DNA from: Acidobacteriaceae bacterium KBS 89
GTDB lineage: Bacteria; Acidobacteriota; Terriglobia; Terriglobales; Acidobacteriaceae
Direction: 5' to 3'
Assembly (NCBI GenBank): GCA_000381605.1
Contig: KB906754.1
Coordinates: 310,001 to 374,000, forward strand
DNA: 64,000 nt
Within the stretch, counting starts at the first letter, position 1, and each line of letters opens with the position of its first letter. Below, in pieces: positions 6,001-18,611 of this stretch. A program made the position numbers and the translations under genes. The notes under the pieces were generated by a model that was not told the origin of the DNA, did no database searches, and worked only from the letters and a program-made list of their open reading frames with translations.

Positions 6001-6901
6001 CCACCCCACCCTTGTCAAATGTTGCGTTCACGATTCCTTCGCGAAGAGAGGCCGCCGAACCGGAAGAGCCAGGGCCAATCACAGCAAGCTGCGAGTCGTC
6101 GTTGCTCATGGAAAGCTTAGCGCTGTAGTCGCTCAATAGCATTGCTTCGTAGCGGAGCGCATTGCGAAGCTGGACGCTGTTCATACCAATGGCGGGCGAC
6201 TCGCCTACAAGAAAGAGATAGATAACGCGATGGTAGCTGGACCATGCGAAGTCCTTTTCGTCAATCTGAGGACTGTACTTGAGAATAATGAGGCCGGGTT
6301 GCTGCTCGCGATCACGATCCTCCTCAGTCTGTATCGTCATGGCTGAGTTTTCCGCTGAGGCTGATGAATGCGGGCTCCGCCAGGGAAGCCAGTAGCTACT
6401 TCCAAGATAGCGATTGTCGGCTGCGGCCTGCATAAGCGAGTCAATCGTGCGATCGAACTCGAGCGTCAGATGGCTGTGAACTGGATCGGGAACAGCCGCA
6501 ATGATAGCGCGAATCTCCAGCTTATGAACATCTTCAGCCGGACCTGGTGACGCTCCGTTCGCGTCATTGGAGGAGACCTTCGGGATGCCCCAGCGGTCGC
6601 CGGCAGCTTCACAGTCAGTTGTTGGATCGTCCGCTAACGAATCGGCCTGAGGCCCCCCCTCAGTTCCAGTCGTTAATTCGGGAGCCTTTTCTTTCCTTGC
6701 AGGCGCTTTCCATCTGGCAGCGGTCCAGTACCTGCAAGATGCAAGCCAAGGGCCTTCGCCAGCGGCTGGTTTCGACCCCGCCGCATGAGAGGGCGGCGAC
6801 TTCAAACTACCGGACACCTTCGGAGTCGAGCCGGTCCCGACCCGGAACAATGCACCGGCTAAGAGAATTACGCCGACGACAGCACTCTGCCCTCTATTCA
6901 T
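3071..6901 (-). CDS. Very large membrane protein with periplasmic receptor-like region (unknown function)
   Basis: The protein is about 1,276 residues long. It has an N-terminal signal or anchor (MNRGQSAVVGVILLAGALF). A low-complexity linker leads into an extracytoplasmic region of about residues 200-610 that reads like a type-1 periplasmic-binding fold, for example YILITASNILDELFLAQFLH and RIVFFNGGDLL. From about residue 640 there are many transmembrane segments, a charged helical cytoplasmic stretch with an RSNESVRQLINNDDLRKAI-type sequence, and more helices to the C-terminus. No kinase, GGDEF or ATPase motif is visible. A GTG start at 6928 is possible, but the ATG at 6901 has AGGG about ten bases upstream and begins directly with the signal. 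It stands alone downstream of the DyP operon. Confidence 0.7.
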   Translation of the reverse strand: MNRGQSAVVGVILLAGALFRVGTGSTPKVSGSLKSPPSHAAGSKPAAGEGPWLASCRYWTAARWKAPARKEKAPELTTGTEGGPQADSLADDPTTDCEAAGDRWGIPKVSSNDANGASPGPAEDVHKLEIRAIIAAVPDPVHSHLTLEFDRTIDSLMQAAADNRYLGSSYWLPWRSPHSSASAENSAMTIQTEEDRDREQQPGLIILKYSPQIDEKDFAWSSYHRVIYLFLVGESPAIGMNSVQLRNALRYEAMLLSDYSAKLSMSNDDSQLAVIGPGSSGSAASLREGIVNATFDKGGVGSKSQGITHVVAAGTTSTPIASQELNSSSATRSMTYYSFGEDTRFEEDRLVEVFKGSHPDAAHTAILSEDNTVFGEMNSQRTGSSGPIYIRFPREISLLRNAQGEQTGKSSGPTESPTPYLNLSLKDLSADDTVPQFSIIQTPLSQEAQLMAIAHQLQRARVEYILITASNILDELFLAQFLHRACPDARIVFFNGGDLLVERDVDNARYIGSITVSPYDLTTLGRPLGAWRAFSDSQAEAIYNAASYIFWQGSPESGKEPPKLSGYLRGEDKNLQAPLWATAVGSDGYYPLGLLAGCASQSVHILPTIDARGPKECVDLAISSMQLLARPSPNAAPSLFWTILCVLIAGLCIGHGAVMLSAEYWSPFTRDLAVHQNDQPRRRAVYLNIGTAVLFCMAFAIASPMFLVLRVYQWDLGNLVVASITLLFGIAAVGATIFKTWPYVGYQPQKSPKYPTDLYFVFNLIALATVIMFPVIWIWICVHEPAKGAASHVGLFFSYRCLHPGSGVSPVIPVLLLLSGWYLWSAFQTARLRFSTMNRPRLPDNVAATSAYPLFVSDNQLGVCRNSIHSCLFENISCLLITREVLRRFTRWSHNKLNAIFFLVYMSLFALCVFCGRIQSLERFLLDPGRRPTAYEFLIAALFFPLIMVVLTGWLRMILIWGSLSRGLLEPLERMPIRSAFTRLKEVGWMTMLSQSSLHIRWRDMARSNESVRQLINNDDLRKAISDEVKWDAMKEAYNDLTLKLKELREHVRLQKRSKNVRVAPMEHPKDDFDLPIEKDRRDLSFIYSIEKRYATFCELILSDVLIPYWNAERVGFVEDDADVPGGEHAKPDSDAPKDPLYIRLAEELIVIRYVALIRSVLVNIRFLMLFVSSAFVLAIIAWNSYPFQPHQLIDWCFTLLLIFLGIGFVFLLAQMHRNAILSRITDTIPNELGLDFYLRIVTFGAVPVLTWFAYQFPGLGGSLFRLLQPGLQVIK

Positions 6902-7248
6902 GTGCGTTTCGCCCTGAGAGAAAATCACGCTCCTGGAACGTGTCAGGAATGCGGGCCCGATCGCTTAGGTAAAAAGCAATGCCGGTCAGTTACGTATCTC
7001 GGACGGCTGCCGTTTCAGTTTTGCAATGAGGGCCGGGAGGAATCGCTGCAAGCTAGAACAATTGAATCAACTGGCGATGCACGGAAGTCTAGCACAAGCA
7101 GGAGTTGCGGATGGAGTCGAACTGCCTCCCCATGCTCACGCACTCGTTGAACGCCACACAATTATTTGTGGCTGAACTTCTTTCCGAGATTTCTTGCGGC
7201 GTTCTTTTGCGGCGTTCGGGGACGGCAAGAGATCTCCGGCGAGCTATC
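6902..7248. other. Gene-poor stretch between the receptor-like gene and the DyP gene
   Basis: About 350 bases lie between the DyP stop and the start of the large membrane gene. There is no convincing coding frame. An 11-base sequence TTGCGGCGTTC occurs twice, 13 bases apart (about 7194-7217). The promoter of the large membrane gene should lie here, but no clear -35/-10 pair can be picked by eye. No strong terminator was found for the DyP operon. Confidence 0.4.
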
Positions 7249-8754
7249 TCAATCGCCGAAGCTGCAAAGGTAGCGAAGCGCGCGGATACCCGGCAGAAAA
7301 AAGTAGGCGCCGCCTTGCACTGTGACAAACTGCGGAAGCCCCGCAACCCGCTCCCGCAGCCCGTTCTTCTGGGGGAGCGAGAAAATGTCGGTCACAGGAC
7401 AACCCTGCACGGGCTCGCGATTCCCCAGGAGTGGGTCGCTCTCTTCGGTAAGCCCGCCAAACTTGGTGCTCATCATCCATGAACTCTGCACGAACTCGAA
7501 TTGACGAGAGATATTGGCGCTGAGAGTGATGAAATGAATGCCATGGTCATCGGTCTCTGGCGCGTCTTTTTTGATCGCATCCTCAACGGAGAGCCCAGGG
7601 CCATACTCACGCCCTCGCCGCAGCAGCCTATGAAATCGTGTCGAGGCAATCACATCGTCACGAAAATTTGCCTCACCGAAACCCAACGTATGCGTCAGCC
7701 GCGAAAGTACTCCCGTTATGCCTGGTGGCAGGTCAGCATTGCGCGGATTAGCTCTCCGGATGTGCGCACCGAATGGGCAGAGAAGGCCGTTCGAATCCCC
7801 CTCATAAGTAAATTGGTTCTGCGATACTTCGGTCGGGTCAACGCCCCCAATTCTCCGAGTGCTGAGCGCCACCAGTGGATCGCCTTTTTGCGTACGGCCC
7901 ACCAGGGATTCTGCCAGCTTTCGCCGCATCTCGGGATCGGAGTTCGCTTGCATATCCGCAAATCGCCAGAACCCTCGCACGTCCTGCTTCAGTTGGCGCA
8001 AAACAAGGTAGGTGCCATTACGTCCTAGGTCGCGCATCTCCGGCAAGTCCTCCGCAGCAGGCAACGATGCGCTGAAGGGGTCATTGATTTGAAGCAACGG
8101 CCGGTCGGTATATTTTCCGTACTCATTCGAATAGCCGAGCAGAAACTCGCCAAGTGCGGTGAGGTTGCCGTACTCCAACTCATCGCCATGTATCTTACGT
8201 CGACGCTCCCAATCGACCTTAGGCTGGCTAAGACCATCGGTGAATCCGAACGGCTCAACACCATCCAGGTTCGAAGTCGGGAGTACATCGATCACATTAA
8301 ATGCAGCATCCCACTGAGGCCCCTGAATAGTCCTCATGAACCCTTCCAGCATTTGGTCGCGCGCATACACCAAAACGAGGAGATCCGGAACCTTGCCCGG
8401 TGCTCCCCATGTCCACTTCTCCGGCGAATTCGGTCCAACATCCCCCAGCCGCCGCGAGCGGCTTTCCTCACCAGCCATCCCCGACAAAAATTCAGCCGAG
8501 AAACCGGCGAGCACTTCTTCTGGCAATTGCAGCGCGTGAAGTCCCTCCCGCGTGAACGCCACCTGCAGAGCGGTCGAAGGGGCCTCCTCGAGTTGTACTG
8601 CATTGGAGATTGGCGCACCGGTGAGCCAGGCACGTGCCGCGGTCACATTACGAATGGACAAGAGGAGGAACGACGCTTCGGTGAGCTTTCCATAGCCGAA
8701 CCGCACCAGACCCTGAATATCTGAGTAGTCGACCGGTGTAGTACTCGCCATCAT
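7249..8754 (-). CDS. DyP-type heme peroxidase
   Basis: This 501-residue dye-decolorising peroxidase uses hydrogen peroxide to oxidise phenolic and other bulky substrates, and binds heme b. The GxxDG motif (GFTDG, residues 170-174) carries the catalytic Asp173. The proximal heme His is in CPFGAHIRRANPR (His331). The distal Arg region reads STRFHRLLRRG (about 371-381). FVQSSWMM near residue 421 is a usual C-terminal signature. There is no signal peptide, so it is probably cytoplasmic or encapsulated. It starts seven bases after the upstream membrane gene, as the last gene of a four-gene operon beginning with a GMC oxidoreductase. That context suggests a dedicated oxidation pathway rather than general peroxide defence. 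The physiological substrate is unknown. Confidence 0.93.
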   Translation of the reverse strand: MMASTTPVDYSDIQGLVRFGYGKLTEASFLLLSIRNVTAARAWLTGAPISNAVQLEEAPSTALQVAFTREGLHALQLPEEVLAGFSAEFLSGMAGEESRSRRLGDVGPNSPEKWTWGAPGKVPDLLVLVYARDQMLEGFMRTIQGPQWDAAFNVIDVLPTSNLDGVEPFGFTDGLSQPKVDWERRRKIHGDELEYGNLTALGEFLLGYSNEYGKYTDRPLLQINDPFSASLPAAEDLPEMRDLGRNGTYLVLRQLKQDVRGFWRFADMQANSDPEMRRKLAESLVGRTQKGDPLVALSTRRIGGVDPTEVSQNQFTYEGDSNGLLCPFGAHIRRANPRNADLPPGITGVLSRLTHTLGFGEANFRDDVIASTRFHRLLRRGREYGPGLSVEDAIKKDAPETDDHGIHFITLSANISRQFEFVQSSWMMSTKFGGLTEESDPLLGNREPVQGCPVTDIFSLPQKNGLRERVAGLPQFVTVQGGAYFFLPGIRALRYLCSFGD

Positions 8755-8761
8755 TGCGCTC

Positions 8762-10063
8762 CTAGAAAAGCCGTAACCATTGCTGCACCTCGTCAGAAGT
8801 CATAGTTTCCTTCTGCAGTCCCTCGCGAATGAGCGTGTTCCGTTGTAAATCGAGCGCCGTCAGCCCCGGATGAGCGTTGTACCAAACCTCCGTGGCTAGC
8901 TCGTGCCGGCGAATGTAGTACTTGAACTTCTGCTCATCTTTCGCGCCGTCCAGAATGAGCCAGTTCGTCGTCGGATAGCCAATTCCGTTACTGAACACGA
9001 GGTTCAGGCCAAAGGCCACCTTGTTGATGAAGTCATCCATGTAACTATCGAGACTGCCGTCATAATTGCTGGCGAAGAATAGCCGCCGCTTGTTATCGAG
9101 GAACACCCAGCGTGCGAAATGAATTGTGTTCACCCGTGCCAAACGCCCCCGATTGTAGATATGCAACGTCGTGTAGTTGATGGCCCACAGAAAAAAGACC
9201 AGAGTCCAGCGACGAAACAGTCCAGGCTTAATCGTTCCAAAGGCGCTGAACTGGTTTGTGACGTCATGGTCCTCCAGAACGGCAAGCCGATCCGCATGTC
9301 CAGGCTCCACACACGGCGCGATCTCCGGGTCGGACCGCTCGCGTCGTCGAAGTTGAAACGCAAAGAACGGCGCGTAAAGCAGCAGAAACGGCGAAGCGAG
9401 AAGAAGCACGATCGGCACGCCGACAAGATGCAGAAGGTTGCGTACCTGCCAAACAAGCGGAGTAGGTTCGGGAGGCGTCAGCGTTAGGCGACCCGCTTTC
9501 AACTCCCCCGCAACGAATCGCTTAAGCGCATCGTGCACCTGGGTTGATTGCATGGAAGCAAGCGTCGCTTGATTTGTTTGTACGTAGCTTTGCAGACCAT
9601 CGTACAAAGACGCTTCTTCACGAACCTGCCGCGTCGTCCGCCCAATCCAGTTCACATAAATCGTGTCCGGGGTGCGATTTCTTGCCTTCATCCAGGCAAG
9701 CAGATCCGAGTTGGGGTGGAAATCCTCGCAACACGAAAACATTTGTCTCAGCCCGCTACCCGAAGCTTTCACAACGTCAGACATGAAGCCGTCGTAGTCC
9801 CCATCGAAGTCACCCAAAAACGCTAGGTAAAGCGGATAGGTCTCCGGCTGGAGACCATAGACCTTGATATCGTTTCGCGTCAGGTCATCGAGGATCACAA
9901 TTCGCGCGAAGTGCAGCCGGTCGAATCGCTCGAACGGGATCAGAGCATTTCCAGGGTCGACAACTCCCGGAGAACGATTCATGTCGGCAAGGACCTTCCG
10001 CAGATCCGCCAGCCGCTGCGCGGCGATAGGTGCAACGACCATGAAGCTGGATTGCGGAGTCAT
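8762..10063 (-). CDS. DyP-associated membrane protein with an internal duplication (unknown function)
   Basis: The 433-residue protein has two related modules. The first (about residues 35-125) contains LHFARIVILDD, then YLAFLGDFDGDYDGFMSDV and GLRQMFSCCEDF. The second (about 320-390) contains IHFARWVFLDN, FFASNYDGSLDSYMDDF and GLNLVFSNGIGYP. Shared positions are HFAR, hydrophobic-LD, a DG pair, an M-D pair and GL...FS. A hydrophobic hairpin (about 210-240) and another hydrophobic stretch before the second module suggest membrane attachment. The ATG at 10063 is two bases after the previous stop. It is co-transcribed with the DyP peroxidase. I do not recognise a named family; the modules could be ferredoxin-like alpha/beta folds. 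Confidence 0.75.
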   Translation of the reverse strand: MTPQSSFMVVAPIAAQRLADLRKVLADMNRSPGVVDPGNALIPFERFDRLHFARIVILDDLTRNDIKVYGLQPETYPLYLAFLGDFDGDYDGFMSDVVKASGSGLRQMFSCCEDFHPNSDLLAWMKARNRTPDTIYVNWIGRTTRQVREEASLYDGLQSYVQTNQATLASMQSTQVHDALKRFVAGELKAGRLTLTPPEPTPLVWQVRNLLHLVGVPIVLLLASPFLLLYAPFFAFQLRRRERSDPEIAPCVEPGHADRLAVLEDHDVTNQFSAFGTIKPGLFRRWTLVFFLWAINYTTLHIYNRGRLARVNTIHFARWVFLDNKRRLFFASNYDGSLDSYMDDFINKVAFGLNLVFSNGIGYPTTNWLILDGAKDEQKFKYYIRRHELATEVWYNAHPGLTALDLQRNTLIREGLQKETMTSDEVQQWLRLF

Positions 10064-10065
10064 AA

Positions 10066-10497
10066 TCAGAACTGAAGGGCAAAGTCGATTAGCCGTTTCT
10101 TGTCCCAATAAACCTTGCCCAGATACATTCCGGGGCCGATCTGACGAATCTCGTCGCGAATCCACTGCGCGACCAGCGAGGTCTCAGAGTAGTCGAGTAC
10201 GATGCATTCTTTGCCATCGAACCAGCTGTTGCCTTTGTAGATAGTGGCGACAATCGCGTTCAATCCGAAAGCAAGGATCCTGTTCCGCAGAACTCCCCTC
10301 GCCGCGTCGAAGTTTTTTCCCTGCCAGCCAAAATGGCTGATCAGCGTCGCGATCTCCTGCGTATATTTGGTTCCTGGCGCGACAATAGCCGTTCCGACCG
10401 CTTCTCCATTGGGAATTTCTCCCGTTGCACTATCGGTGAACAGCTTGTCGAGTTCGGCCTGAGACATCGCTAAGAGTTGTGGAATGTCATACGCCAT
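10066..10497 (-). CDS. Small conserved protein in the DyP operon (unknown function)
   Basis: The 143-residue protein starts at an ATG with an excellent AGGAGGAG site eight bases upstream. The frame extends further upstream, but that part overlaps the GMC gene antisense to nothing useful and lacks a ribosome-binding site. There is no signal peptide and no clear transmembrane helix. Recognisable stretches are YDIPQLLAMSQAELDKLF near the N-terminus, NAIVATIYKGNSWFDGKECI in the middle, and IRQIGPGMYLGKVYWDKKRL near the end. This resembles small proteins that accompany oxidative gene clusters and keep a GMYLGKV motif. A lipocalin- or START-like binding role is possible but unproven. Confidence 0.75.
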   Translation of the reverse strand: MAYDIPQLLAMSQAELDKLFTDSATGEIPNGEAVGTAIVAPGTKYTQEIATLISHFGWQGKNFDAARGVLRNRILAFGLNAIVATIYKGNSWFDGKECIVLDYSETSLVAQWIRDEIRQIGPGMYLGKVYWDKKRLIDFALQF

Positions 10498-10613
10498 TTG
10501 CTCTCCTCCTTGGGGACGAAGGGAAACTTTAAATTTGGCAGAGTTCACCGGCCGATTGCGACTTACATAGTGGCCCACTATCGCCGGATTCGCGAAGGTT
10601 GTCAAATGGACAA

Positions 10614-12524
10614 TCACTTCCGCGAAGCAGAAGTCGAGGCTTCTTCCAGAATTACATCGGCCGCCTTCTCGCCGATCATATACACCGCACTCACGATGAA
10701 AAATCCCGGAATGCGAGGGAACACGGATGCATCCACAACGCGCAATCCACTTATCCCATAGACGCGAAACTTGCTGTCGAGCACTCCATTTTGCTCCCTC
10801 GGACCGATAGCGCAACTGCACGACGCATGGTGTCCCCAGGCGTTATCGCGAACGTACTTTCGCAAATCTTCATCCGACTCAAGCGCGGCGCCCGGCAACT
10901 CTTCCTCAGCGATCACACCATCTTCCCTCAACTTCGCCGTAATTCGACGAACAAATCTAATGCCGTCCACAACGGAATCGAGGTCCTCACCACCGTCCTG
11001 AGTGCCCTCCTGAAAATAGCGGAAGTTGATCCGGGGCGTATCGCGAGGATCTTTCGAGCGAAGCGTGATCTCACCCTCACGGTTGTTCGTATGTGCCTTC
11101 AGCACCGCCCACGTAAGGTAATTCAGGCTTTTAGCAAACAGCTCCGAATAAGTCGGAAAGTATCCTTCAAAGCGGCCGAGCACGGCCAGGCAAAATAAGT
11201 CAGGGAGCGGCCGGTCATCGGCCGAGCGCTTGAAAAGTGACAGGACCGAACCATTCGTGATGTAAGGGCCATTGCGCCTTTCGCTCCAGCATTTGTATTG
11301 CGGATCGGTGCTATCGAATTTCGCGCCCTCAAACACCTCCCACTCCTTGAACTTCATTCGATTCACGACGCCTATCTCGTAGCGATCTTGTAAATTCTTT
11401 CCCACTCCCGGCAGGTCGACCCGGACCTCAATGGCATGTTTGCGCAACTCTTCGGCAGGACCAATCCCCGAAAGCATCAACAACTGTGGACTATTGAACG
11501 CTCCGCCAGCGAGAATTACCTCGCGCGTAGCATACGCCTGTCGAAGCTCTGCAGGGCCCCCGCGCGGTCGAGCGTGAGCGCGATAGAGTCTCTCGCCCTT
11601 CTGATACTCAACCCCAATTGCCCGCTGATTATCGTCAAGAATAACGCGTGTCGCCAACGCATTCATCTCGATCGTCATTCGGTCCGGAAACCTCTTCGCT
11701 ACATCCAGCACGCGCTCTCGTGTTCCCCTTCGGGCGTGATTGCGCGTCGTCAGCGGCATGTACCGCAGCCCGATCGAATTCTCCTTCACTGTCCTGCAGT
11801 CATTCGGGTCGAGCAGGCTTTGCAGAAACCACCTGGTGCGATCCACCACATGACCGATGTCTTGAATTGCACTCTCAATAGAGGCAATAAGCACCTTTCG
11901 CAGGTCCCGTTCGCCCAACACAGTGTCTGGAAACGCCTTCTCTGTTTGCAGCCAACCATTCCATCCATGGCGCGACGGGTTGATGCCGAGTTTAGCGAGC
12001 AACCGATACAGTGGGCGATGATGACAGTTCTCCAGCCGCTCAAAGTAGCCTCGCATCTTCTGCGACTTCCATGACGGATCGCCGGTGAGCGCAGAAATTC
12101 CGTCCCAGTCCGCATCATTTGGGTAGACGAAGATCATCGCGTTATGAGCGGTGCATCCACCAAGGGTGCCGGCCCGAGGATAGAGAACGCCATCGACGCG
12201 CTCTCCGTCCCAGACCTCGCGATACTTTGGATCGAGTCTCTGTGCCGCATCGTCGCCGTAATGACGGACGAAGAAATCCCACTTCATCGCTTCATTTTCG
12301 GAGGCAAACGCGTGAAAGCACGGCACGTCGTAGTCATTGGGAAGGCGGTTCGTCTCCACGCTCACTGGGTCGCCGCCCGACAGCTCTCGGGGATCGCCAC
12401 CAGCCTCCAGAAGCAACACCGTGTGGCCGGCCTCCGCCAGACGCGCAGCAACGGTTCCTCCGCCTGCACCGGAGCCGACCACGATATACTCCCATTCCCG
12501 TCGGTCTTCGCTCTCTTGGCTCAT
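10614..12524 (-). CDS. GMC-family FAD-dependent oxidoreductase
   Basis: This 636-residue flavoprotein of the glucose-methanol-choline family oxidises an alcohol-type substrate. It passes electrons either to O2, making H2O2, or to a cytochrome acceptor. The N-terminal dinucleotide fold reads VVGSGAGGG (residues 15-23) and ends at an LLLEAGG turn. The GMC signature AFNSPQLLMLSGIGP is present near residue 345. The active-site region has WGHHASCSC, with paired His, near residue 575. The second catalytic position normally read in an NP motif lies here in an atypical RIPGFFIVSA stretch. It is the first gene of the operon that ends with DyP and is divergent from the catalase-like gene. An H2O2-producing oxidase feeding the peroxidase is an attractive inference. 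Confidence 0.92.
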   Translation of the reverse strand: MSQESEDRREWEYIVVGSGAGGGTVAARLAEAGHTVLLLEAGGDPRELSGGDPVSVETNRLPNDYDVPCFHAFASENEAMKWDFFVRHYGDDAAQRLDPKYREVWDGERVDGVLYPRAGTLGGCTAHNAMIFVYPNDADWDGISALTGDPSWKSQKMRGYFERLENCHHRPLYRLLAKLGINPSRHGWNGWLQTEKAFPDTVLGERDLRKVLIASIESAIQDIGHVVDRTRWFLQSLLDPNDCRTVKENSIGLRYMPLTTRNHARRGTRERVLDVAKRFPDRMTIEMNALATRVILDDNQRAIGVEYQKGERLYRAHARPRGGPAELRQAYATREVILAGGAFNSPQLLMLSGIGPAEELRKHAIEVRVDLPGVGKNLQDRYEIGVVNRMKFKEWEVFEGAKFDSTDPQYKCWSERRNGPYITNGSVLSLFKRSADDRPLPDLFCLAVLGRFEGYFPTYSELFAKSLNYLTWAVLKAHTNNREGEITLRSKDPRDTPRINFRYFQEGTQDGGEDLDSVVDGIRFVRRITAKLREDGVIAEEELPGAALESDEDLRKYVRDNAWGHHASCSCAIGPREQNGVLDSKFRVYGISGLRVVDASVFPRIPGFFIVSAVYMIGEKAADVILEEASTSASRK

Positions 12525-12665
12525 ATCTCCTCAGTGGGAAAATCTAGCACGGCCCGACGCTCACCAGACAAGGGGCTTGTCATCACCCCGAAAAAGCATC
12601 GCCTATAGTTTGCACCTGCCTGTAAAATTCTGCATGACCGCGCGCTGATTGACCGGAGCAAATCA
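12525..12665. promoter_or_regulatory. Divergent control region of the GMC-DyP operon and the catalase-cytochrome operon
   Basis: These 141 bases are the only space between the two divergent units and must hold both promoters. No perfect sigma-70 boxes stand out. A GATTGACCGGAG stretch lies immediately before the plus-strand start and probably serves as its ribosome-binding site. The sharing of this short region suggests coordinated control. Confidence 0.5.
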
Positions 12666-13841
12666 ATGCCACTTGGACCCCGCATCAACGACGCACTTCT
12701 CGGCCTGGTGGCGCTCGAACATCGCGTTGATCCCTATTTTCGCGACGCGTTCAATGCTCTATTTCAGCGACCACTCGTCGACATCACGCAGTTTTTTCTT
12801 CGCCACACTCATGTCAACCCTGAAACCCGGCTCTGCGAGGAGATTCCCTCCGCAGGAGAAGCCGAACTGGCGGCAGGCATCACGCAGCAAATGGAAAACT
12901 TTACCAAGCGAGAGTATCAGGGACGCACAGCAGAACGCGCAGGCAACACCAAGACCTACGGCGTTGTGCGTGGCAAGTTTCAGGTTCGCTCCGATGTCCC
13001 TGCACACCTGCGCAAAGGAATTTTCGCGGAACCGAACCGCTATCCCGTGTGGATCCGCCTCAGTGGCCCCGGACCGCTCTCACCGCCCGATGTCGCTGAC
13101 GCTGGCATACTCAGCATCGGCATCAAGCTGATGGGAGTCGACGGACAGAAATTGCTCGACGACGAGAAAGAGACGCAGGACTTTCTCGGTATTAGCTCTC
13201 CTACGTTTACCACTCCCAACGTAACGGAGAACTTGAAATTACAGAAACAGATCTATGCTCGAACGCCGGTCTTCTACTTCCTCAATCCATTTAATTCTCA
13301 CCTTCTCGACATGGCCATGCAGGGACTCTACGCCCGCATGAACACAAGTCCACTCGAGGTCCAGTATTGGAGTTGCGTCCCATATCTCTGCGGAGAAGGT
13401 CTGGCGGTTAAGTACTCCGTCCGGCCAACTTCGAATCATAAAACAAAGATCCCCTCGTCTCCTCCGGCGAACTGGCTAAGACAATCCATGGCGATGTCGC
13501 TTGCTGAAAGGCAGGTCGAACTGGACTTCCTGCTCCAGACGCAAACCGATCCGCGGAGAATGCCGATTGAAGATGCTTCCATCGAATGGCCAGAGAGATT
13601 GTCTCCCTTCATACCTGTCGCTCGGATTACGATCCCACGGCAACGCTTCGATTCACCGGAGCAACTTGCCTTCGCCGGCGAACTCTCCTACAACCCCTGG
13701 CACGCCGTCGCGGAACATCGTCCTCTGGGAAATCAGAATCGCGCTCGAAAACTCATCTACTCCCATCTCTCGCAGCTTCGACAAAGCATGAACCATCAAC
13801 CACACATCGAACCCACCGGCAAAGAAGTTTTTCCCGAATAA
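12666..13841 (+). CDS. Catalase-superfamily heme protein (non-canonical)
   Basis: The 391-residue protein has the order of motifs seen in small catalase-family proteins: KTYGVVRGKFQV (about residue 97), LRKGIFAEPNRYPVWIRLSG (about 116-135), then GIKLMGV and a DFLG element. In classical catalases the first motif carries the distal histidine; here the equivalent place reads Y or T, so catalase activity is doubtful. The C-terminal FDSPEQLAFAGELSYNPWHA and EHRPLGNQNRARKLIY match the NPWH and PLGxxNRxR pattern of this family. That fold also includes allene oxide synthase-like enzymes. There is no signal peptide. It is the first gene of the plus-strand half of the redox island, 132 bases before the first cytochrome. 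Confidence 0.82.
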   Translation: MPLGPRINDALLGLVALEHRVDPYFRDAFNALFQRPLVDITQFFLRHTHVNPETRLCEEIPSAGEAELAAGITQQMENFTKREYQGRTAERAGNTKTYGVVRGKFQVRSDVPAHLRKGIFAEPNRYPVWIRLSGPGPLSPPDVADAGILSIGIKLMGVDGQKLLDDEKETQDFLGISSPTFTTPNVTENLKLQKQIYARTPVFYFLNPFNSHLLDMAMQGLYARMNTSPLEVQYWSCVPYLCGEGLAVKYSVRPTSNHKTKIPSSPPANWLRQSMAMSLAERQVELDFLLQTQTDPRRMPIEDASIEWPERLSPFIPVARITIPRQRFDSPEQLAFAGELSYNPWHAVAEHRPLGNQNRARKLIYSHLSQLRQSMNHQPHIEPTGKEVFPE

Positions 13842-13973
13842 TTTTTTCTTCACGGCTTTCAAAGTGCGGACCGCTTGTTGTATCGTCCCGCTAGGCAGCA
13901 TTCGCAACGAACGTCGGCTGCAGGGTCCCGCAAATGAGCAAGCAGGGATCAAGGCCCCCTGTAAGGAGCGTCT

Positions 13974-16418
13974 ATGACTCGATTCACCCCGAAGTGTGGG
14001 TCAGTGCTGGCAGTTTTTCTTTTGCTTTCGTTGACCGGCTGCCCCAAGAGCCAGCAGTCCGGCCAGGTATTGGACGAAGCCCGCAGAGTCGGACGGACTC
14101 CAGCATCATTCCCCGCCGCAGACGAAGACTACTTCCACGACATGGACGGCGGCATCGCCTTGACCGCCGATGAGATCAAGGGCCGGAACACTTGGCTGGT
14201 GTGGACTGGCGGAGACGATCGCCTTTGGGATGTGCTTGCAACCGCCAGCGTCGGCAATCTCGACTTTCTCAAGACCCTCTCGTCCTACCCAGGCCTCAAA
14301 GCCAGCCGCGACAATCGCTGGAACTACCTCGGCCTCGTCAACGAGCCTTGTTTCGACAAGGCCACCGGACCAGACTCAGAACGTTACGGGCTGTGGCTCG
14401 ACAAACGTCGCGCAGACTGCCCCGCAGACCCCTTCGCGAACGACTCCAAATATCCGGGTGTCGTCGTCGGTGCTCGCGGCAAGAATATTCCCGCAGGATC
14501 GTTCTACGGCTACGCCACCGGCATTGTGGGTCTACGCCTCTTTCCCAATCCGGACTTTGACGAAGCCGCCGCGAAGCGTTGGGACCCAAAACGTTTTTAC
14601 GACGATCCGAGTTACTACAACGACAAAAAGCTAATCAGACCCTACCGCGTCGGAATGTCTTGCGCCTTCTGCCACGTCGGGCCGAACCCAGTGAAGCCTC
14701 CCGCCGATCCTGAAAATCCGAAGTGGGAGAATCTCAGCTCGAACGTCGGCGCCCAGTATTTTTGGATCGATCGCATCTTCGCTTGGGACTCGGATATGAG
14801 CAGCTTTGTCGTGCAGCTCTTCCACACATCCAGACCCGGCACGCTCGATACCTCTCTTGTATCTTCCGATAACATCAACAATCCGCGCTCAATGAACGCA
14901 GTCTACGGATTGATGCCCCGCCTGCAGCAAGCGAAACGCTGGGGCAAGGAAACCCTCGCCGGCGGAAATCTGAACAACAAGCAGTTCAATGACTACGTTC
15001 ACTCTGGAGATCTCACCCAGTTCTACCAGGCGCCAGACACAGTCTGGGCACCACGAGTCCTCAAAGACGGCTCAGACTCTGTTGGAGCGCTCGGCGCGCT
15101 CAACCGTGTCTATTTGAATATCGGACTCTTCAGCGAAGAATGGCTCCTTCACTTCCGCCCCCTCGTTGGCGGAGAACACATCACGCCAATCGAGATATCC
15201 GTCGCGAACAAAAACTCCGCATACTGGGAGGCCACCGAGCAGCAGACCCCGGACATGGCGCTCTTCTTCCTGAAGAGCACTGAACCTCACCTGTTGAAGG
15301 ACGCACCCGGCGGCTCCGCATATCTCACCAAGGACCAAGCGAAGCTGCAGCGCGGCGAAACCGTCTTCGCCGAAAGATGCGCACGCTGCCATTCCAGCAA
15401 GATCCCGGAGCCCGCACCCGGAGTCGATCCCGGCGGCTGCTCCGGAAAAGATTACATGACATGCTGGAACAAATATTGGGCCTGGACCAAGACGGACGAA
15501 TTTAAATCCGCCATGCGTCAGATGGTCCATCAGAAGGACTTCCTGAAAGGCAACTACCTCTCCACGGAGCTGCGCATTCCAGTTACGTTGCTGCAGACGA
15601 ACGCATGCAGTCCGCTCGCGACCAATGCAATCGGCGGAAACATCTGGGACAACTTCTCTTCGCAGACCTACAAAGACCTCCCGTCTGTCGGATCGATCAC
15701 TGTCTATGATCCCGTGACCGGCGCGCCTAGCAGCTATCAAATGCCGGCGGGTGGCAGAGGCTACACTCGCCCCGCCTCCCTCATCAGCGTGTGGTCGACC
15801 GCACCCTTCCTGCAAAACAATAGCATCGGAAAGTTCAACCCGAGCCCCTCGGTTGACGCGCGCATGCAGTCGTTTCAGGATTCCATCGAAAAGATGCTCT
15901 GGCCGGAGAAACGTGAGAAAGATTCCGTGCTCGGCGACAAAATACCGGGCGTCATCGATAGAACGACCACTCGCAGCTATCTCCGCATACCCGCCGGATA
16001 CCTGCCCGACTATCTCAAACCTCTCCTGAGTACCGGTCCGCGCCTCCTGCCAACAGTCTTTGGCGAAGGAGGAATCGAAATTGGCCCTATCCCCGCCGGG
16101 ACTCCGGTAGACCTACTGGCAAACTTTGACATCCTGGGTGAACCCGCAAACACCGGGGAACAGATCCACAGACAAGCGCAGATTTTGGCCGTCCTGTTGA
16201 AACTCAAACATGACCTCGAGGGGTTGCCAAAGGACGCCACCGACGACGACGCAAAAAAAGCCTTCGCAAACGCAGTCGCTCCCCTGCTCGCCCTAAATAA
16301 GTGCCCCGACTTCGTGGTCAATCGCGGCCACTATTTCGGCACAAGCTATTTCGCAGAGGAACCTGGCCTCAGCGACGACGACAAGCGTGCACTGATTGAG
16401 TACCTGAAGACCTTTTGA
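13974..16418 (+). CDS. Diheme c-type cytochrome lipoprotein, RoxA/CCP-like
   Basis: The 814-residue exported lipoprotein has a signal ending in LTGC (Cys near residue 23). Two heme c attachment motifs are visible, CAFCH at 230-234 and CARCH at 469-473. Two large domains each with one heme is the architecture of bacterial diheme cytochrome c peroxidases and of the rubber oxygenases RoxA/RoxB; the length and wide motif spacing fit the latter better. A Cys-containing insert (GGCSGKDYMTCWNK) follows the second heme motif and is absent from the neighbouring paralogue. It should face the periplasm. Substrate unknown: candidates are hydrocarbon or polyisoprenoid cleavage, or peroxide reduction. Confidence 0.85.
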   Translation: MTRFTPKCGSVLAVFLLLSLTGCPKSQQSGQVLDEARRVGRTPASFPAADEDYFHDMDGGIALTADEIKGRNTWLVWTGGDDRLWDVLATASVGNLDFLKTLSSYPGLKASRDNRWNYLGLVNEPCFDKATGPDSERYGLWLDKRRADCPADPFANDSKYPGVVVGARGKNIPAGSFYGYATGIVGLRLFPNPDFDEAAAKRWDPKRFYDDPSYYNDKKLIRPYRVGMSCAFCHVGPNPVKPPADPENPKWENLSSNVGAQYFWIDRIFAWDSDMSSFVVQLFHTSRPGTLDTSLVSSDNINNPRSMNAVYGLMPRLQQAKRWGKETLAGGNLNNKQFNDYVHSGDLTQFYQAPDTVWAPRVLKDGSDSVGALGALNRVYLNIGLFSEEWLLHFRPLVGGEHITPIEISVANKNSAYWEATEQQTPDMALFFLKSTEPHLLKDAPGGSAYLTKDQAKLQRGETVFAERCARCHSSKIPEPAPGVDPGGCSGKDYMTCWNKYWAWTKTDEFKSAMRQMVHQKDFLKGNYLSTELRIPVTLLQTNACSPLATNAIGGNIWDNFSSQTYKDLPSVGSITVYDPVTGAPSSYQMPAGGRGYTRPASLISVWSTAPFLQNNSIGKFNPSPSVDARMQSFQDSIEKMLWPEKREKDSVLGDKIPGVIDRTTTRSYLRIPAGYLPDYLKPLLSTGPRLLPTVFGEGGIEIGPIPAGTPVDLLANFDILGEPANTGEQIHRQAQILAVLLKLKHDLEGLPKDATDDDAKKAFANAVAPLLALNKCPDFVVNRGHYFGTSYFAEEPGLSDDDKRALIEYLKTF

Positions 16419-16472
16419 GCAATAGCTAAAGCACACGCCAGAATGCTGGTTAGGTGGCTCCAGGGGAGCGCT

Positions 16473-18611
16473 GTGAAAAAGACATCGATCGCGCTCGTTC
16501 TCATCGCCTTTTTCTTCGCCCTCTTCGCTCTACTCGAATGGTGGCAGGTCAATCGACCCATTCCCGACGACGCAAAGGCCGCCGGCAAGACAGTTGCCGA
16601 CTTCCCCGAGTCCCTCTCGCGCGCCTTCGACTCAATGGACGGTGGAATCACTCTAAGCGAAGACGAAAGAAAGGGAAGAAACACCTGGCTGCTTTGGACT
16701 GCAGGAGATCAGGTGTTCTGGGACCGCATGGCCCAGCACGGTTTTGGCACAGCCGATCTGCTCAAAACGATCGACTCTCGCCGTCGAAGCTCGCGATTCG
16801 AAGAGATGGGGTTGGTCAACCAGCCAGGCTACCAATCTGCTGCCGCGCCCGACGAGTATGGCCTATGGCTCGATTCGGGACCTGTAGAAGCTGGAGTCGA
16901 TCCAGCGGTCTACGGAAAACCTACCGGCATTGTTGGCCTCAGAATCTACCCGAATCCATACTTCGATAGCAGCGCCCGGCAACGATGGAACCCAGCCCGC
17001 TACTTTGGCGACCCCAGCTACTACAGCGACCCAAATCTAGTGCGCCCCTATACAGTTGGCATGTCCTGCGCCTTCTGTCACGTCTCCTTCAATCCAACAA
17101 GTCCGCCACCTGATCCCGAAAATCCGAAGTGGGAGAACCTCTCCTCAACCATCGGCAACCAATACATCAACGCAAGCAAGATCTTTGCCCCCGCTGCCGC
17201 AAATGACAGTTACGTCACTCAACTCTTTCACTCATGGGCCGCGGGCACCATCGACACATCGTTTATCGCCACCGACAATCTCAACAATCCAGGCAGCATC
17301 AATGCGATCTTCGCTTTGCCGCCCCGCATGGCAGTGGCCCAACAGGAAAAAATATCCGGTGGGGCATTGCTGCTACCCGGCGAACACGCCACGATGTCCA
17401 TCCCGCATGTACTCAAAGATGGCGCGGACTCCGTCGGCATCGCGGGCGCGCTCAGCCGTGTCTACGTCAGCATCGGCGAGTACAGCCAGGAATGGCTGCG
17501 CGATCAGAATCCCTTTGTCGGTGGACTCCCCCAGCGACCCTTCGAGATTGCGAAGGCACAAGCCGCGTCCGTCTATTGGCAGACGACAGCGTCACGCATC
17601 CCCAACCTCGCTAGCTTCCTTCTCGAGATGAAAGGTCCCCGTCTCGAGGATGCCCCAGGGGGCGCAAACTTCTTCACTGCGAACGTTGCCCAGCTTGAGA
17701 AGGGGAAGATCATCTTTGCTGAGAACTGTGCCCGTTGTCATTCCAGCAAGCAACCTCCGGCGACAATGGATCGATCATCCCAGGAATATCTTGCGTGGAT
17801 GCGCAACGAAGTCCTGAAGGCAGACTTCCTCGCGGACAACTACCTCTCGACCGACGAGCGCATACCGGTCACGATCGTGCAGACAAACGCAATACGAGCT
17901 CTTGCGACGAACGCCACCGCCGGACACGTCTGGGACAACTTCTCTTCAGCAACCTACAAAGATCTCGCACCCGTCGGAGACATTCAGGTCCTCGACCCAT
18001 TTGATGGCTCAACGAAAACTTTCACGGTTCCCGGCGGCGGCCCGGGCTACTACCGCGTTCCTTCCCTGGTCGGCATCTGGGCCACCGCTCCCTTCTTCCA
18101 CAACAACTCTCTTGGCGCGTACACGGCCGATCCATCCGTTCAAGGCCGCATCTCCGCCTTCAACGATGCAATCGAAAAATTGTTGTGGCCGGAAAAGCGC
18201 CGCGGCATAGAGTCCATTGCGCAAACCACAGTTGAAAGCTACATTGAGATACCGACAACTTACCTTCCCAAAGACCTGCAGTCCCTTGTGCAGGGAAGCA
18301 CCCTACGCATCGGCCCCATCCCCGCCGGCACGCCCATCAATCTTCTCGCGAACGCAGACCTGGACCTATCGCGCCGCGACAAAACGATTGAAAAAATCAA
18401 GCTCGTTGCCAGAGTGCAACATGACCTGATGACAATCCGCACGCAGAAGCTCGGCCCAGCCGATGCGAAGAAACTATTGATGAATCTCGTACCCGCATTG
18501 CTGAGCATCAGCAAGTGCCCAGACTTTGTCGAAGACCGGGGCCATACCTTCGGATCCAACCTGACAGACGATGACAAACGCGCTTTGATCGAGTTTCTCA
18601 AGACATTCTGA
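16473..18611 (+). CDS. Membrane-anchored diheme c-type cytochrome, RoxA/CCP-like paralogue
   Basis: This 712-residue paralogue of the preceding gene begins with a transmembrane anchor (KKTSIALVLIAFFFALFALL) instead of a lipobox. Heme motifs are CAFCH (199-203) and CARCH (419-423). Published RoxA motifs sit at similar positions (about 191 and 390), which is from memory. The two paralogues share long identical blocks around both hemes, such as RPYxVGMSCAFCHV and ENPKWENLSS. I prefer the GTG at 16473 because CAGGGGAG precedes it by five bases; the ATG at 16443 has no such site. It ends the redox island. The tandem pair with different anchors could divide labour between outer and inner membrane. 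Confidence 0.85.
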   Translation: MKKTSIALVLIAFFFALFALLEWWQVNRPIPDDAKAAGKTVADFPESLSRAFDSMDGGITLSEDERKGRNTWLLWTAGDQVFWDRMAQHGFGTADLLKTIDSRRRSSRFEEMGLVNQPGYQSAAAPDEYGLWLDSGPVEAGVDPAVYGKPTGIVGLRIYPNPYFDSSARQRWNPARYFGDPSYYSDPNLVRPYTVGMSCAFCHVSFNPTSPPPDPENPKWENLSSTIGNQYINASKIFAPAAANDSYVTQLFHSWAAGTIDTSFIATDNLNNPGSINAIFALPPRMAVAQQEKISGGALLLPGEHATMSIPHVLKDGADSVGIAGALSRVYVSIGEYSQEWLRDQNPFVGGLPQRPFEIAKAQAASVYWQTTASRIPNLASFLLEMKGPRLEDAPGGANFFTANVAQLEKGKIIFAENCARCHSSKQPPATMDRSSQEYLAWMRNEVLKADFLADNYLSTDERIPVTIVQTNAIRALATNATAGHVWDNFSSATYKDLAPVGDIQVLDPFDGSTKTFTVPGGGPGYYRVPSLVGIWATAPFFHNNSLGAYTADPSVQGRISAFNDAIEKLLWPEKRRGIESIAQTTVESYIEIPTTYLPKDLQSLVQGSTLRIGPIPAGTPINLLANADLDLSRRDKTIEKIKLVARVQHDLMTIRTQKLGPADAKKLLMNLVPALLSISKCPDFVEDRGHTFGSNLTDDDKRALIEFLKTF

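What the first reader, a model, noticed from the sequence alone, without database searches (positions are those of the whole stretch)
7249..18611. Divergent heme/flavin redox island: GMC oxidoreductase, DyP, two unknown proteins, catalase-like protein and tandem diheme cytochromes
Seen: four minus-strand genes (GMC, 143-residue protein, duplicated-module membrane protein, DyP) with gaps of 116, 2 and 7 bases, and three plus-strand genes (catalase-superfamily, two CAFCH/CARCH cytochromes), all sharing a 141-base control region. Known: GMC oxidases can make H2O2, DyP uses it, and RoxA/RoxB-type diheme proteins cleave polyisoprene. Inference: this is one pathway oxidising a bulky or hydrophobic substrate, with periplasmic attack by the cytochromes and cytoplasmic processing by the flavoprotein and peroxidase. 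No such system is known to me as a unit. It is the strongest candidate here for something undescribed.
Basis: partly seen in the sequence, partly recalled or inferred. Interest (0 to 1): 0.78.

Follow-up and report, generated by a model that had tools for sequence, protein, structure and literature searches.

The report
Conserved bacterial lipid-oxidation gene cluster
Seven neighbouring genes of a soil acidobacterium belong to a gene set that recurs, reshuffled, in several bacterial phyla, and its companions elsewhere (a fatty-acid dioxygenase and lipases) suggest an undescribed way for bacteria to oxidise fatty lipids.

Summary
In detail: seven genes, gaps of 116, 2 and 7 bases, and a 141-base divergent region. 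The genes are a real unit. Of 29 loci found through the 143-residue protein, 28 carry at least one partner family; 20 control windows carry none. Among 41 congeneric genomes, 5 hold all six families, 2 hold part, 1 holds two remnants, and 33 hold no close copy.

The set is modular. GMC co-varies with the cytochrome (r 0.93) and the membrane protein with DyP (0.96), but the catalase-like protein with nothing. RoxA/FadCcp-like di-heme genes occur at 7 of 29 loci, never with membrane protein, DyP or catalase-like genes.

Function is inferred. A fatty-acid alpha-dioxygenase gene lies within 5 kb at 3 of 29 loci, once contiguous with the membrane protein and DyP. Lipases recur. The catalase-like protein lacks the distal histidine. 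I propose oxylipin-type lipid (hydro)peroxide metabolism at the membrane. Rubber cleavage, lignin attack and plain peroxide defence fit less well. My literature searches found no description of the set. No activity was tested.

The parts
7249..8754 (-). DYP: DyP-family haem peroxidase without export signal by hydropathy, 501 aa
   Evidence: Family profile A7 matches solved DyPs at E 1.4e-89. Asp173 of the GxxDG motif, His331 and Arg379/Arg380 are invariant in 17 of 17 rows. Curated single-sequence cut-offs are not reached.
8762..10063 (-). MEM: two-module protein, two ferredoxin-like (ABM/dimeric alpha+beta barrel) domains around a hydrophobic hairpin, 433 aa
   Evidence: Model pLDDT 88, pTM 0.87. 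Best fold match WhiE-ORFI 9lmn, Z 14.2, 221 residues, 3.7 A. Hydrophobic segment at 210-228. HFAR motif in both halves. No Pfam family.
10066..10497 (-). SML: small protein with a lipocalin-like beta barrel, 143 aa; used as the bait for related loci
   Evidence: Model pLDDT 84. Best match 4mve, Z 12.4, 130 residues, 3.3 A; later rows, Z below 8, include lipocalins and other barrels. 29 loci in several phyla.
10614..12524 (-). GMC: FAD-dependent GMC-family oxidoreductase, 636 aa
   Evidence: PF05199 111 bits, PF00732 79 bits, over cut-offs. WGHHAS invariant in 14 of 14 rows; the segment of the second catalytic residue reads PRIPGFF in the 13 rows that reach it.
12525..12665 (.). 141-base divergent intergenic region
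   Evidence: Read directly. No sigma-70-like promoter in 12400-12800.
12666..13841 (+). CAT: catalase-superfamily protein with the proximal Tyr but without distal His/Asn, 391 aa
   Evidence: 24.6% identity over 345 residues (E 8e-24) to an Acinetobacter protein that passes PF00199. Best PDB match of the profile is catalase-related allene oxide synthase 1u5u, E 0.005. RxxxY and Asn94 invariant in 15 of 15 rows.
13974..16418 (+). CYA: di-heme cytochrome with a lipobox-like N-terminus (read by eye), 814 aa, MauG-type His absent (PFLQNNS)
   Evidence: CYA-type distances co-vary with GMC, r 0.93 in 10 loci.
16443..18611 (+). CYB: di-heme cytochrome with N-terminal anchor, 722 aa, MauG-type His present (PFFHNNS)
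   Evidence: RoxA-like_Cyt-c 28.5 bits against a cut-off of 26.7; anchor at 14-32; 49% identical to CYA.

Best explanation
The island is one modular, patchily distributed and probably mobile gene cluster that oxidises a fatty-acyl or other lipid substrate at the inner membrane, in the manner of an oxylipin pathway. SHOWN: conserved linkage; two tightly co-varying pairs (GMC with CYA-type cytochrome, MEM with DyP), SML co-varying with MEM and DyP; RoxA/FadCcp-like di-haem genes in place of MEM+DyP+CAT at some loci; alpha-dioxygenase near SML at three loci of three phyla. INFERRED: an oxygenase makes a lipid hydroperoxide. In some relatives this is the fatty-acid alpha-dioxygenase; in others, and perhaps here, periplasmic di-haem proteins of the RoxA/FadCcp superfamily do it. 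MEM, held in the membrane by its hairpin, presents the lipid to DyP, which spends the hydroperoxide. CAT, a catalase fold without the distal residues, isomerises or dehydrates it. SML is a lipid-binding barrel that hands intermediates on. GMC oxidises the resulting alcohol and its electrons leave through CYA/CYB. The order of steps, the substrate, the mobility and the electron route are inference.
For: Linkage: 28 of 29 SML loci hold a partner family; 10 of 29 hold all six; 0 of 20 control windows hold one. Genus: all six together in 5 of 41 genomes (MEM searched in 37 of the 41). Lipid theme: alpha-dioxygenase within 5 kb of SML at L028 (Acidobacteriaceae), L049 (Myxococcota, contiguous SML-MEM-DYP-unknown-alphaDOX) and L051 (Dormiibacterota), and beside a divergent MEM-DYP pair in G035 (L019). 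Two of these proteins were compared with the PDB and match plant fatty-acid alpha-oxidases at E 1e-113 and 3e-119; the gene occurs in only 5 of 247 genomes of the phylum, one of which (G278) also has SML, on another contig. Lipase/patatin genes at 7 of 29 SML loci by Pfam or by similarity to Pfam-matched proteins, 0 of 20 controls. SML fused to a di-haem peroxidase of NF040606 in L023. P450, MEM-like part and DyP in one protein on three alphaproteobacterial plasmids. CAT profile's best PDB match is catalase-related allene oxide synthase. SML barrel has lipocalins among lower fold matches.
Against: No activity was measured. The window's own genome has no alpha-dioxygenase match at E <= 1e-30 and the seven genes include no lipase. 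Alpha-dioxygenase lies near SML at only 3 of 29 loci, and the SML of L051 has stop codons in frame. All 5 alpha-dioxygenase loci drawn from 247 genomes lack GMC, SML, MEM, DYP, CAT, cytochrome and FCCP next to them. In L028 and L019 the alpha-dioxygenase has Arg at the distal-His position (kept in L049 and L051; Tyr and proximal His kept in 4 of 4). The CAT match to allene oxide synthase is weak (E 0.005), and CAT lacks that enzyme's Thr66/His67/Asn137 equivalents. CAT distances co-vary with no other gene, and the cytochrome's not with MEM (r 0.06) or SML (0.18), though its rows mix CYA and CYB types. Lipase queries came from the loci themselves. MEM's nearest fold is a polyketide-associated ABM protein.
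Confidence: 0.47

Rival explanations
1. Peroxide-fed oxidation of an aromatic or polymeric substrate: GMC oxidises an alcohol and makes H2O2, DyP uses it on lignin-like or dye-like compounds, cytochromes carry electrons.
For: GMC and DyP families are present and linked; the closest solved GMC relatives include choline oxidases, which make H2O2 (product recalled).
Against: GMC is near SML without DyP at L035, L036, L037 and L041 (L037 is cut by its contig end). Second GMC catalytic position changed. The non-cytochrome proteins show no export signal by hydropathy, so polymer attack by DyP is unlikely. No aromatic-degradation gene family was noticed, but none was searched for.
Confidence: 0.21
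2. Tailoring of a pigment, polyketide or other secondary metabolite, with MEM as an ABM-type oxygenase or decarboxylase and DyP, CAT, P450 as oxidative partners.
For: MEM's nearest folds are WhiE-ORFI and the decarboxylase Abx(+)O; P450 fused to MEM-DyP in plasmids; patchy distribution.
Against: No synthase gene was noticed in the neighbourhoods, but only a panel and selected proteins were scanned, not a full annotation. Lipases and alpha-dioxygenase recur instead.
Confidence: 0.13
3. RoxA/RoxB-like cleavage of polyisoprene or terpenoids by CYA/CYB, with the rest processing the cleaved products.
For: CYB passes the Pfam RoxA-like cytochrome cut-off (28.5 vs 26.7); RoxA 4b2n is among weak profile matches (E 0.03).
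Against: CYB scores RoxA 22, RoxB 32 and RoxC 29 bits against curated cut-offs of 900-1000; CYA is not listed for them. The 12 CYA-type rows of 19 lack the MauG-type His.
Confidence: 0.08
4. Defence against H2O2 or organic peroxides.
For: Several haem peroxidase-type families together; DyP catalytic residues intact.
Against: CAT lacks the distal His and Asn of catalases. Flavoprotein, lipocalin-like and cytochrome partners, and absence of any close copy in 33 of 41 congeners, do not suit a housekeeping defence.
Confidence: 0.11

Closest known systems
Oleate-diol synthase operon PA2077/PA2078 (FadCcp, 10S-DOX and 7,10-DS) of Pseudomonas aeruginosa
   Same: Tandem di-haem proteins with two CxxCH motifs 245 and 235 residues apart (here 239 and 220), a C-terminal axial-His candidate, RoxA relation (passages). 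NF040606 di-haem relatives occur at SML loci and one is fused to SML.
   Different: CYA lacks the MauG-motif His; CYA/CYB are longer and below the NF040606 cut-off (47 and 56 bits against 150). PA2077/PA2078 were not compared by sequence here, and the passages seen mention no GMC, DyP, SML, MEM or CAT partner.
Fatty-acid alpha-dioxygenase (plant, cyanobacterial)
   Same: Encoded within 5 kb of SML at 3 of 29 loci; catalytic Tyr and proximal His motif kept in 4 of 4 proteins examined.
   Different: Absent from the window and from its genome at E <= 1e-30; distal His replaced by Arg in two of the four.
Catalase-related allene oxide synthase / hydroperoxide lyase of corals
   Same: Best PDB match of the CAT profile; proximal Tyr kept.
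   Different: E only 0.005; distal His, Thr and Asn not kept; no lipoxygenase was noticed near CAT (none was searched for).
Rubber oxygenases RoxA/RoxB/RoxC
   Same: Two-haem architecture, RoxA-like cytochrome domain in CYB.
   Different: Far below all equivalog cut-offs.
DyP-type peroxidases with solved structures 8re2/8re3
   Same: Full-length profile match, catalytic residues kept.
   Different: Partnered with MEM, and fused to a MEM-like part and P450 on some plasmids; below the TIGR01413 cut-off.
WhiE-ORFI (polyketide ABM/SchA-like, 9lmn)
   Same: Two ABM-type halves in one chain, Z 14.2 with MEM.
   Different: 8% identity; 221 of 433 residues aligned; MEM has a hydrophobic hairpin.

Membership tests
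DyP-type peroxidase | Asp of GxxDG, proximal His, distal Arg | tested here: met
   D173, H331, R379/R380 invariant in 17 of 17 rows; aligned to 8re3; role of residues recalled
DyP-type peroxidase | Curated cut-offs of PF21105, PF20628, TIGR01413 for the window protein | tested here: not met
   18.8/27.5, 14.1/20, 72.7/100.5 bits
Catalase (KatA/KatE type) | Distal His and Asn | tested here: not met
   His position is Asn94 in 15 of 15 rows (a gapped alignment would place Lys96 there, also not His); Asn position is Ser in 13, Val in 1 and Cys in 1 of 15 rows
Catalase superfamily | Proximal Tyr (RxxxY) and detectable homology | tested here: met
   Y365 invariant in 15 of 15 rows; E 8e-24 to a protein that passes PF00199
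Catalase-related allene oxide synthase | Thr66, His67, Asn137 at the distal side | tested here: not met
RoxA/RoxB rubber oxygenase | Equivalog model score | tested here: not met
   CYB 22 and 32 bits against 1000 and 900; CYA not listed
FadCcp (PA2077/PA2078) | Two CxxCH about 235-245 residues apart | tested here: met
   239 (CYA) and 220 (CYB, slightly shorter), paper passages
FadCcp (PA2077/PA2078) | MauG motif with His (PYFHNGSVP) | tested here: inconclusive
   CYB PFFHNNS keeps the His, CYA PFLQNNS does not; His in 7 and absent in 12 of 19 rows
FadCcp (PA2077/PA2078) | Common branch in a tree; fatty-acid dioxygenase activity | not tested
   No PA2077/PA2078 sequence was obtained; activity needs the bench
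NF040606 di-haem cytochrome c peroxidase | Score of at least 150 bits | tested here: not met
   CYA 46.9, CYB 55.7; relatives at L023 (two), L028 and L042 pass with 170-196
GMC oxidoreductase | PF00732 and PF05199 cut-offs; first catalytic His | tested here: met
   79/23 and 111/24.6 bits; GHH invariant in 14 of 14 rows
GMC oxidoreductase | Second catalytic His/Asn | tested here: not met
   Segment reads PRIPGFF instead of the Asn-containing segment of choline oxidase; role recalled
ABM / dimeric alpha+beta barrel (MEM) | Two ferredoxin-like halves | tested here: met
   Model; Z 14.2 and 11.1 to 9lmn, 9ltx; fold only
Lipocalin-like barrel (SML) | Up-and-down beta barrel fold | tested here: inconclusive
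   Z 12.4 to 4mve, titled only Tcur_1030 protein; lipocalins at Z about 5.6-6.5, a range that may reflect only a common arrangement

The most novel reading that the evidence does not exclude
A cross-phylum bacterial oxylipin system not yet described: a mobile kit in which interchangeable hydroperoxide-forming modules (fatty-acid alpha-dioxygenase, or RoxA/FadCcp-like di-haem oxygenases) are plugged into a common processing core made of a membrane-held ABM-like protein with DyP, a catalase fold stripped of its distal residues, a lipocalin-like carrier and a GMC flavoprotein with its own di-haem cytochrome. DyP peroxidases, long without a clear natural substrate, would here act on lipid hydroperoxides.
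Probability: 0.33. Interest if true: 0.8.

Novelty: new variant of a known kind. Interest (0 to 1): 0.62.

Why it matters
DyP peroxidases are widespread but their natural substrates are mostly unknown (recalled); a conserved partner set, in one relative contiguous with a fatty-acid dioxygenase gene, gives a concrete candidate. Bacterial oxylipins are known mainly from Pseudomonas diol synthase and a few lipoxygenases (recalled); a second, modular route in soil phyla would widen that field and would give functions to three protein families without one in the libraries searched (SML, MEM and this catalase clade).

Tried and rejected
CAT as an allene-oxide-synthase-like enzyme with the diagnostic Thr: my first reading of the gapped alignment put Thr95/Lys96 at Thr66/His67 of the coral enzyme, and my notebook entry says so. 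The profile match and the alignment with the Acinetobacter relative put Gly93/Asn94 there, so I dropped that claim.

NF040606 as a bridge to PA2077/PA2078: among the control genomes only Thermus composti rang, so it stays unknown whether the model covers them; dropped. A FadCcp tree was not made for lack of those sequences.

Anti-phage defence: one marginal match only, of GMC (16.8 bits).

Literature for the set itself: ten searches, seen as listings with abstract starts, showed no paper describing GMC+SML+MEM+DyP+CAT+di-haem cytochrome together. Only open-licence PMC papers are in that library, and the terms did not cover every wording.

Names that rest on recall: DUF2235-like (L011 1854-2999, L019 4165-5235), TAGlip (L049 8430-9815, no Pfam match), P450L (L028 10527-11474, L049 13298-14485, no Pfam match), the GxWxG motif of SML, haem-residue roles in DyP and GMC, lipobox reading, DyP substrates unknown, bacterial oxylipin background. 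Of the three P450-MEM-DyP proteins two pass the Pfam P450 cut-off; the Novosphingobium one does not (20.2 against 22.8).

Rows left out of alignments: A8 L037, L041, L051; A4 the truncated L027 and the uncalled L045, L046; A5 L026 (truncated) and L029; A6 L026, L027, L031, L039 and two partial copies; A7 L029, L030, L033, L048; A9 L037, L045, L046, L048. In one search CY means the first cytochrome row of each locus, so CYB of the window is not in it and CYA and CYB types are mixed.


Full report
OBSERVATION. The genome is 6.0 Mb. Congener contigs match by length records titled Edaphobacter (L034, L039) and Granulicella tundricola, so it is an acidobacterium of that group. I call the genes DYP, MEM, SML, GMC, CAT, CYA and CYB.

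IS IT A UNIT? A scan of one genome for each of 84,980 species with an SML profile returned 29 loci. Their titles name Acidobacteriota (several classes), Planctomycetaceae, Limisphaerales/Verrucomicrobiota, Chloroflexi, Myxococcota, Candidatus Amunia (Dormiibacterota) and Rhodoferax. With translated searches at 60 bits or more, 28 of 29 carry at least one of GMC, MEM, DYP, CAT, the cytochrome, a RoxA/FadCcp-like di-haem protein (FCCP) or alpha-dioxygenase. Single counts of 29: cytochrome 21, MEM 18, DYP 17, GMC 17, CAT 16, FCCP 7, alpha-dioxygenase 3. Ten of 29 hold all six families. The exception, L050, ends inside SML. Of 20 control windows of 20 kb from genomes of this study, none holds any of these; one has a generic hydrolase match. 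Order and strand are reshuffled: CAT lies inside the operon in L013, divergent in L012 and L032, and the cytochrome is at the end of the operon in L012. In 34 loci (the 29 and five others) the commonest same-strand neighbours within 500 bases are MEM-DYP (20), GMC-SML (16), SML-MEM (12) and SML-CAT (9).

In 41 genomes of the genus, copies of at least 45% identity of all six families occur together in 5 (G000, G010, G018, G021, G030). G005 has GMC-SML-cytochrome with FCCP and no MEM, DYP or CAT. G036 has GMC and cytochrome (GMC 52%). G034 has only C-terminal pieces of CYA (64% over 212 residues) and CAT (65% over 40), lying head-on within 750 bases, which looks like the scar of a deletion. The other 33 have no copy at that level over 200 residues (100 for SML), although more distant DyP, CAT-like, GMC or cytochrome homologues (up to 43% over long stretches) occur in some. 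MEM was searched in 37 of the 41. In G021, SML and CAT sit together on a different contig from GMC-MEM-DYP-cytochrome.

MODULES. Protein distances co-vary strongly for MEM-DYP (r 0.96, 15 loci), GMC-cytochrome (0.93, 10), SML-DYP (0.78, 14), MEM-GMC (0.75, 10), SML-MEM (0.72, 16) and DYP-GMC (0.70, 8). CAT follows no other gene (r -0.08 to 0.23). The cytochrome does not follow MEM (0.06) or SML (0.18) and follows DYP loosely (0.51), but its rows mix CYA and CYB types. FCCP occurs at 7 of 29 SML loci and MEM or DYP at 18, never both, and CAT never with FCCP; the chance of no overlap with MEM/DYP is 2e-4 if loci were independent, which they are not, and some contigs are short. Four FCCP-type proteins pass NF040606 (170-196 bits, cut-off 150); CYA and CYB do not (47, 56). 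In L023 SML is fused, through a hydrophobic stretch read by eye, to such a di-haem protein. That would place SML inside and the haems outside the membrane if the usual cytochrome c topology holds.

PROTEINS. DYP keeps the DyP catalytic residues and its profile matches solved DyPs full length. MEM has no Pfam family; its model (pLDDT 88) has two ferredoxin-like halves with a long hydrophobic helix between them, nearest to the polyketide ABM protein WhiE-ORFI (Z 14.2, 221 residues, 3.7 A). SML is a beta barrel nearest to 4mve (Z 12.4), with other barrels and lipocalins far behind. GMC keeps the first catalytic His in 14 of 14 rows; the second position is replaced in the 13 rows that reach it. 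CAT joins the catalase superfamily through an Acinetobacter relative that passes PF00199 and is itself encoded beside DyP and a MEM-like module. Its profile's best PDB match is catalase-related allene oxide synthase, weakly (E 0.005). It keeps RxxxY but has Asn at the distal-His position in 15 of 15 rows. CYA and CYB have two CxxCH and GHxFG with the His invariant in 19 of 19 rows; the MauG-type His is present in the 7 CYB-type rows and absent from the 12 CYA-type rows.

WHAT IT MAY DO. The strongest functional clue comes from relatives. L049 (Myxococcota) has SML, MEM, DYP, an unknown protein and an alpha-dioxygenase in one contiguous plus-strand run (10001-16827), with CAT divergent nearby. 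L051 has SML (with stops in frame) followed directly by alpha-dioxygenase. L028 has SML, an unknown gene on the other strand, then alpha-dioxygenase. G035 (L019) has one beside a divergent MEM-DYP pair, 85% identical to that of L028. The L028 and L049 proteins match plant fatty-acid alpha-oxidases at E 1e-113 and 3e-119. The YRxH motif of catalytic Tyr and proximal His is kept in 4 of 4; the distal His is kept in L049 and L051 and is Arg in L028 and L019 (residue roles from passages of PMC8720084, which also says the distal His is only partially conserved in the family). The gene is rare: 5 of 247 genomes of the phylum. Lipase_3 or patatin genes lie at 7 of 29 SML loci by Pfam or by similarity to Pfam-matched proteins; the queries came from these loci, so this count is biased upward. 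On alphaproteobacterial plasmids P450, a MEM-like part and DyP are one 1423-1620-residue protein, reminiscent, from recall, of fungal dioxygenase-P450 fusions. Against this, all 5 alpha-dioxygenase loci from the phylum sample lack the other partner families nearby, and the window's genome has no alpha-dioxygenase match at the threshold used.

I therefore favour oxidative lipid (hydroperoxide) metabolism at the inner membrane, at a little under even odds, with the unit itself near certain. Peroxide-fed aromatic oxidation, pigment/polyketide tailoring, rubber cleavage and peroxide defence remain as rivals.

KNOWN OR NEW. Parts belong to known superfamilies. The nearest described system is the Pseudomonas oleate-diol synthase pair (PMC4496055: abstract, outline and passages), which shares the tandem di-haem architecture but, in the passages seen, none of the other partners. 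PMC5617202 (passages) gave the coral enzyme residues. PMC11719350 (one passage, of the first 300,000 characters) showed nothing on such a set. Ten searches, seen as listings, showed no description of the whole set, within an open-licence library only. I rate it a new variant of a known kind, because the chemistry is likely of a known type while the assembly appears undescribed.

Noticed in passing
L052:6877-11148, L053:6775-11637, L054:6778-11109: Single proteins of 1423-1620 residues joining P450, a MEM-like part and DyP on plasmids of Pararhizobium, Sulfitobacter and Novosphingobium.
   Followed up: partly
L028:10527-11474 and L049:13298-14485: Proteins of 315 and 395 residues, 33% identical, without Pfam match, next to alpha-dioxygenase in both loci; possible new partner family.
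   Followed up: partly
L021:7024-8106 and L022:11952-13151: Catalase-like proteins beside divergent MEM-DYP that keep a THAKG/THPKG distal motif but lack the proximal RxxxY Tyr, the reverse of CAT.
   Followed up: partly
L028:5687-9094; also L035, L037, L041 and G005:C134 (L076): RoxA/FadCcp-like proteins of about 1110-1135 residues at L028, L035, L037 and L041 (the L028 one is over 600 residues longer than those of L023 and L042), near SML or GMC-SML.
   Followed up: partly
L099:9337-10086 (G034): C-terminal remnants of CYA and CAT lying head-on, the only traces of close copies found in that genome; looks like loss of the cluster by deletion.
   Followed up: partly
window 3071-6928, minus strand: 1285-residue protein without Pfam match next to the island; not searched for elsewhere except by blastp against the loci, where it was not seen.
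   Followed up: no
L057:2831-8524: Small Acinetobacter plasmid carrying a MEM-like module, DyP, a catalase-family gene and a 3-hydroxyacyl-CoA dehydrogenase in a row.
   Followed up: partly
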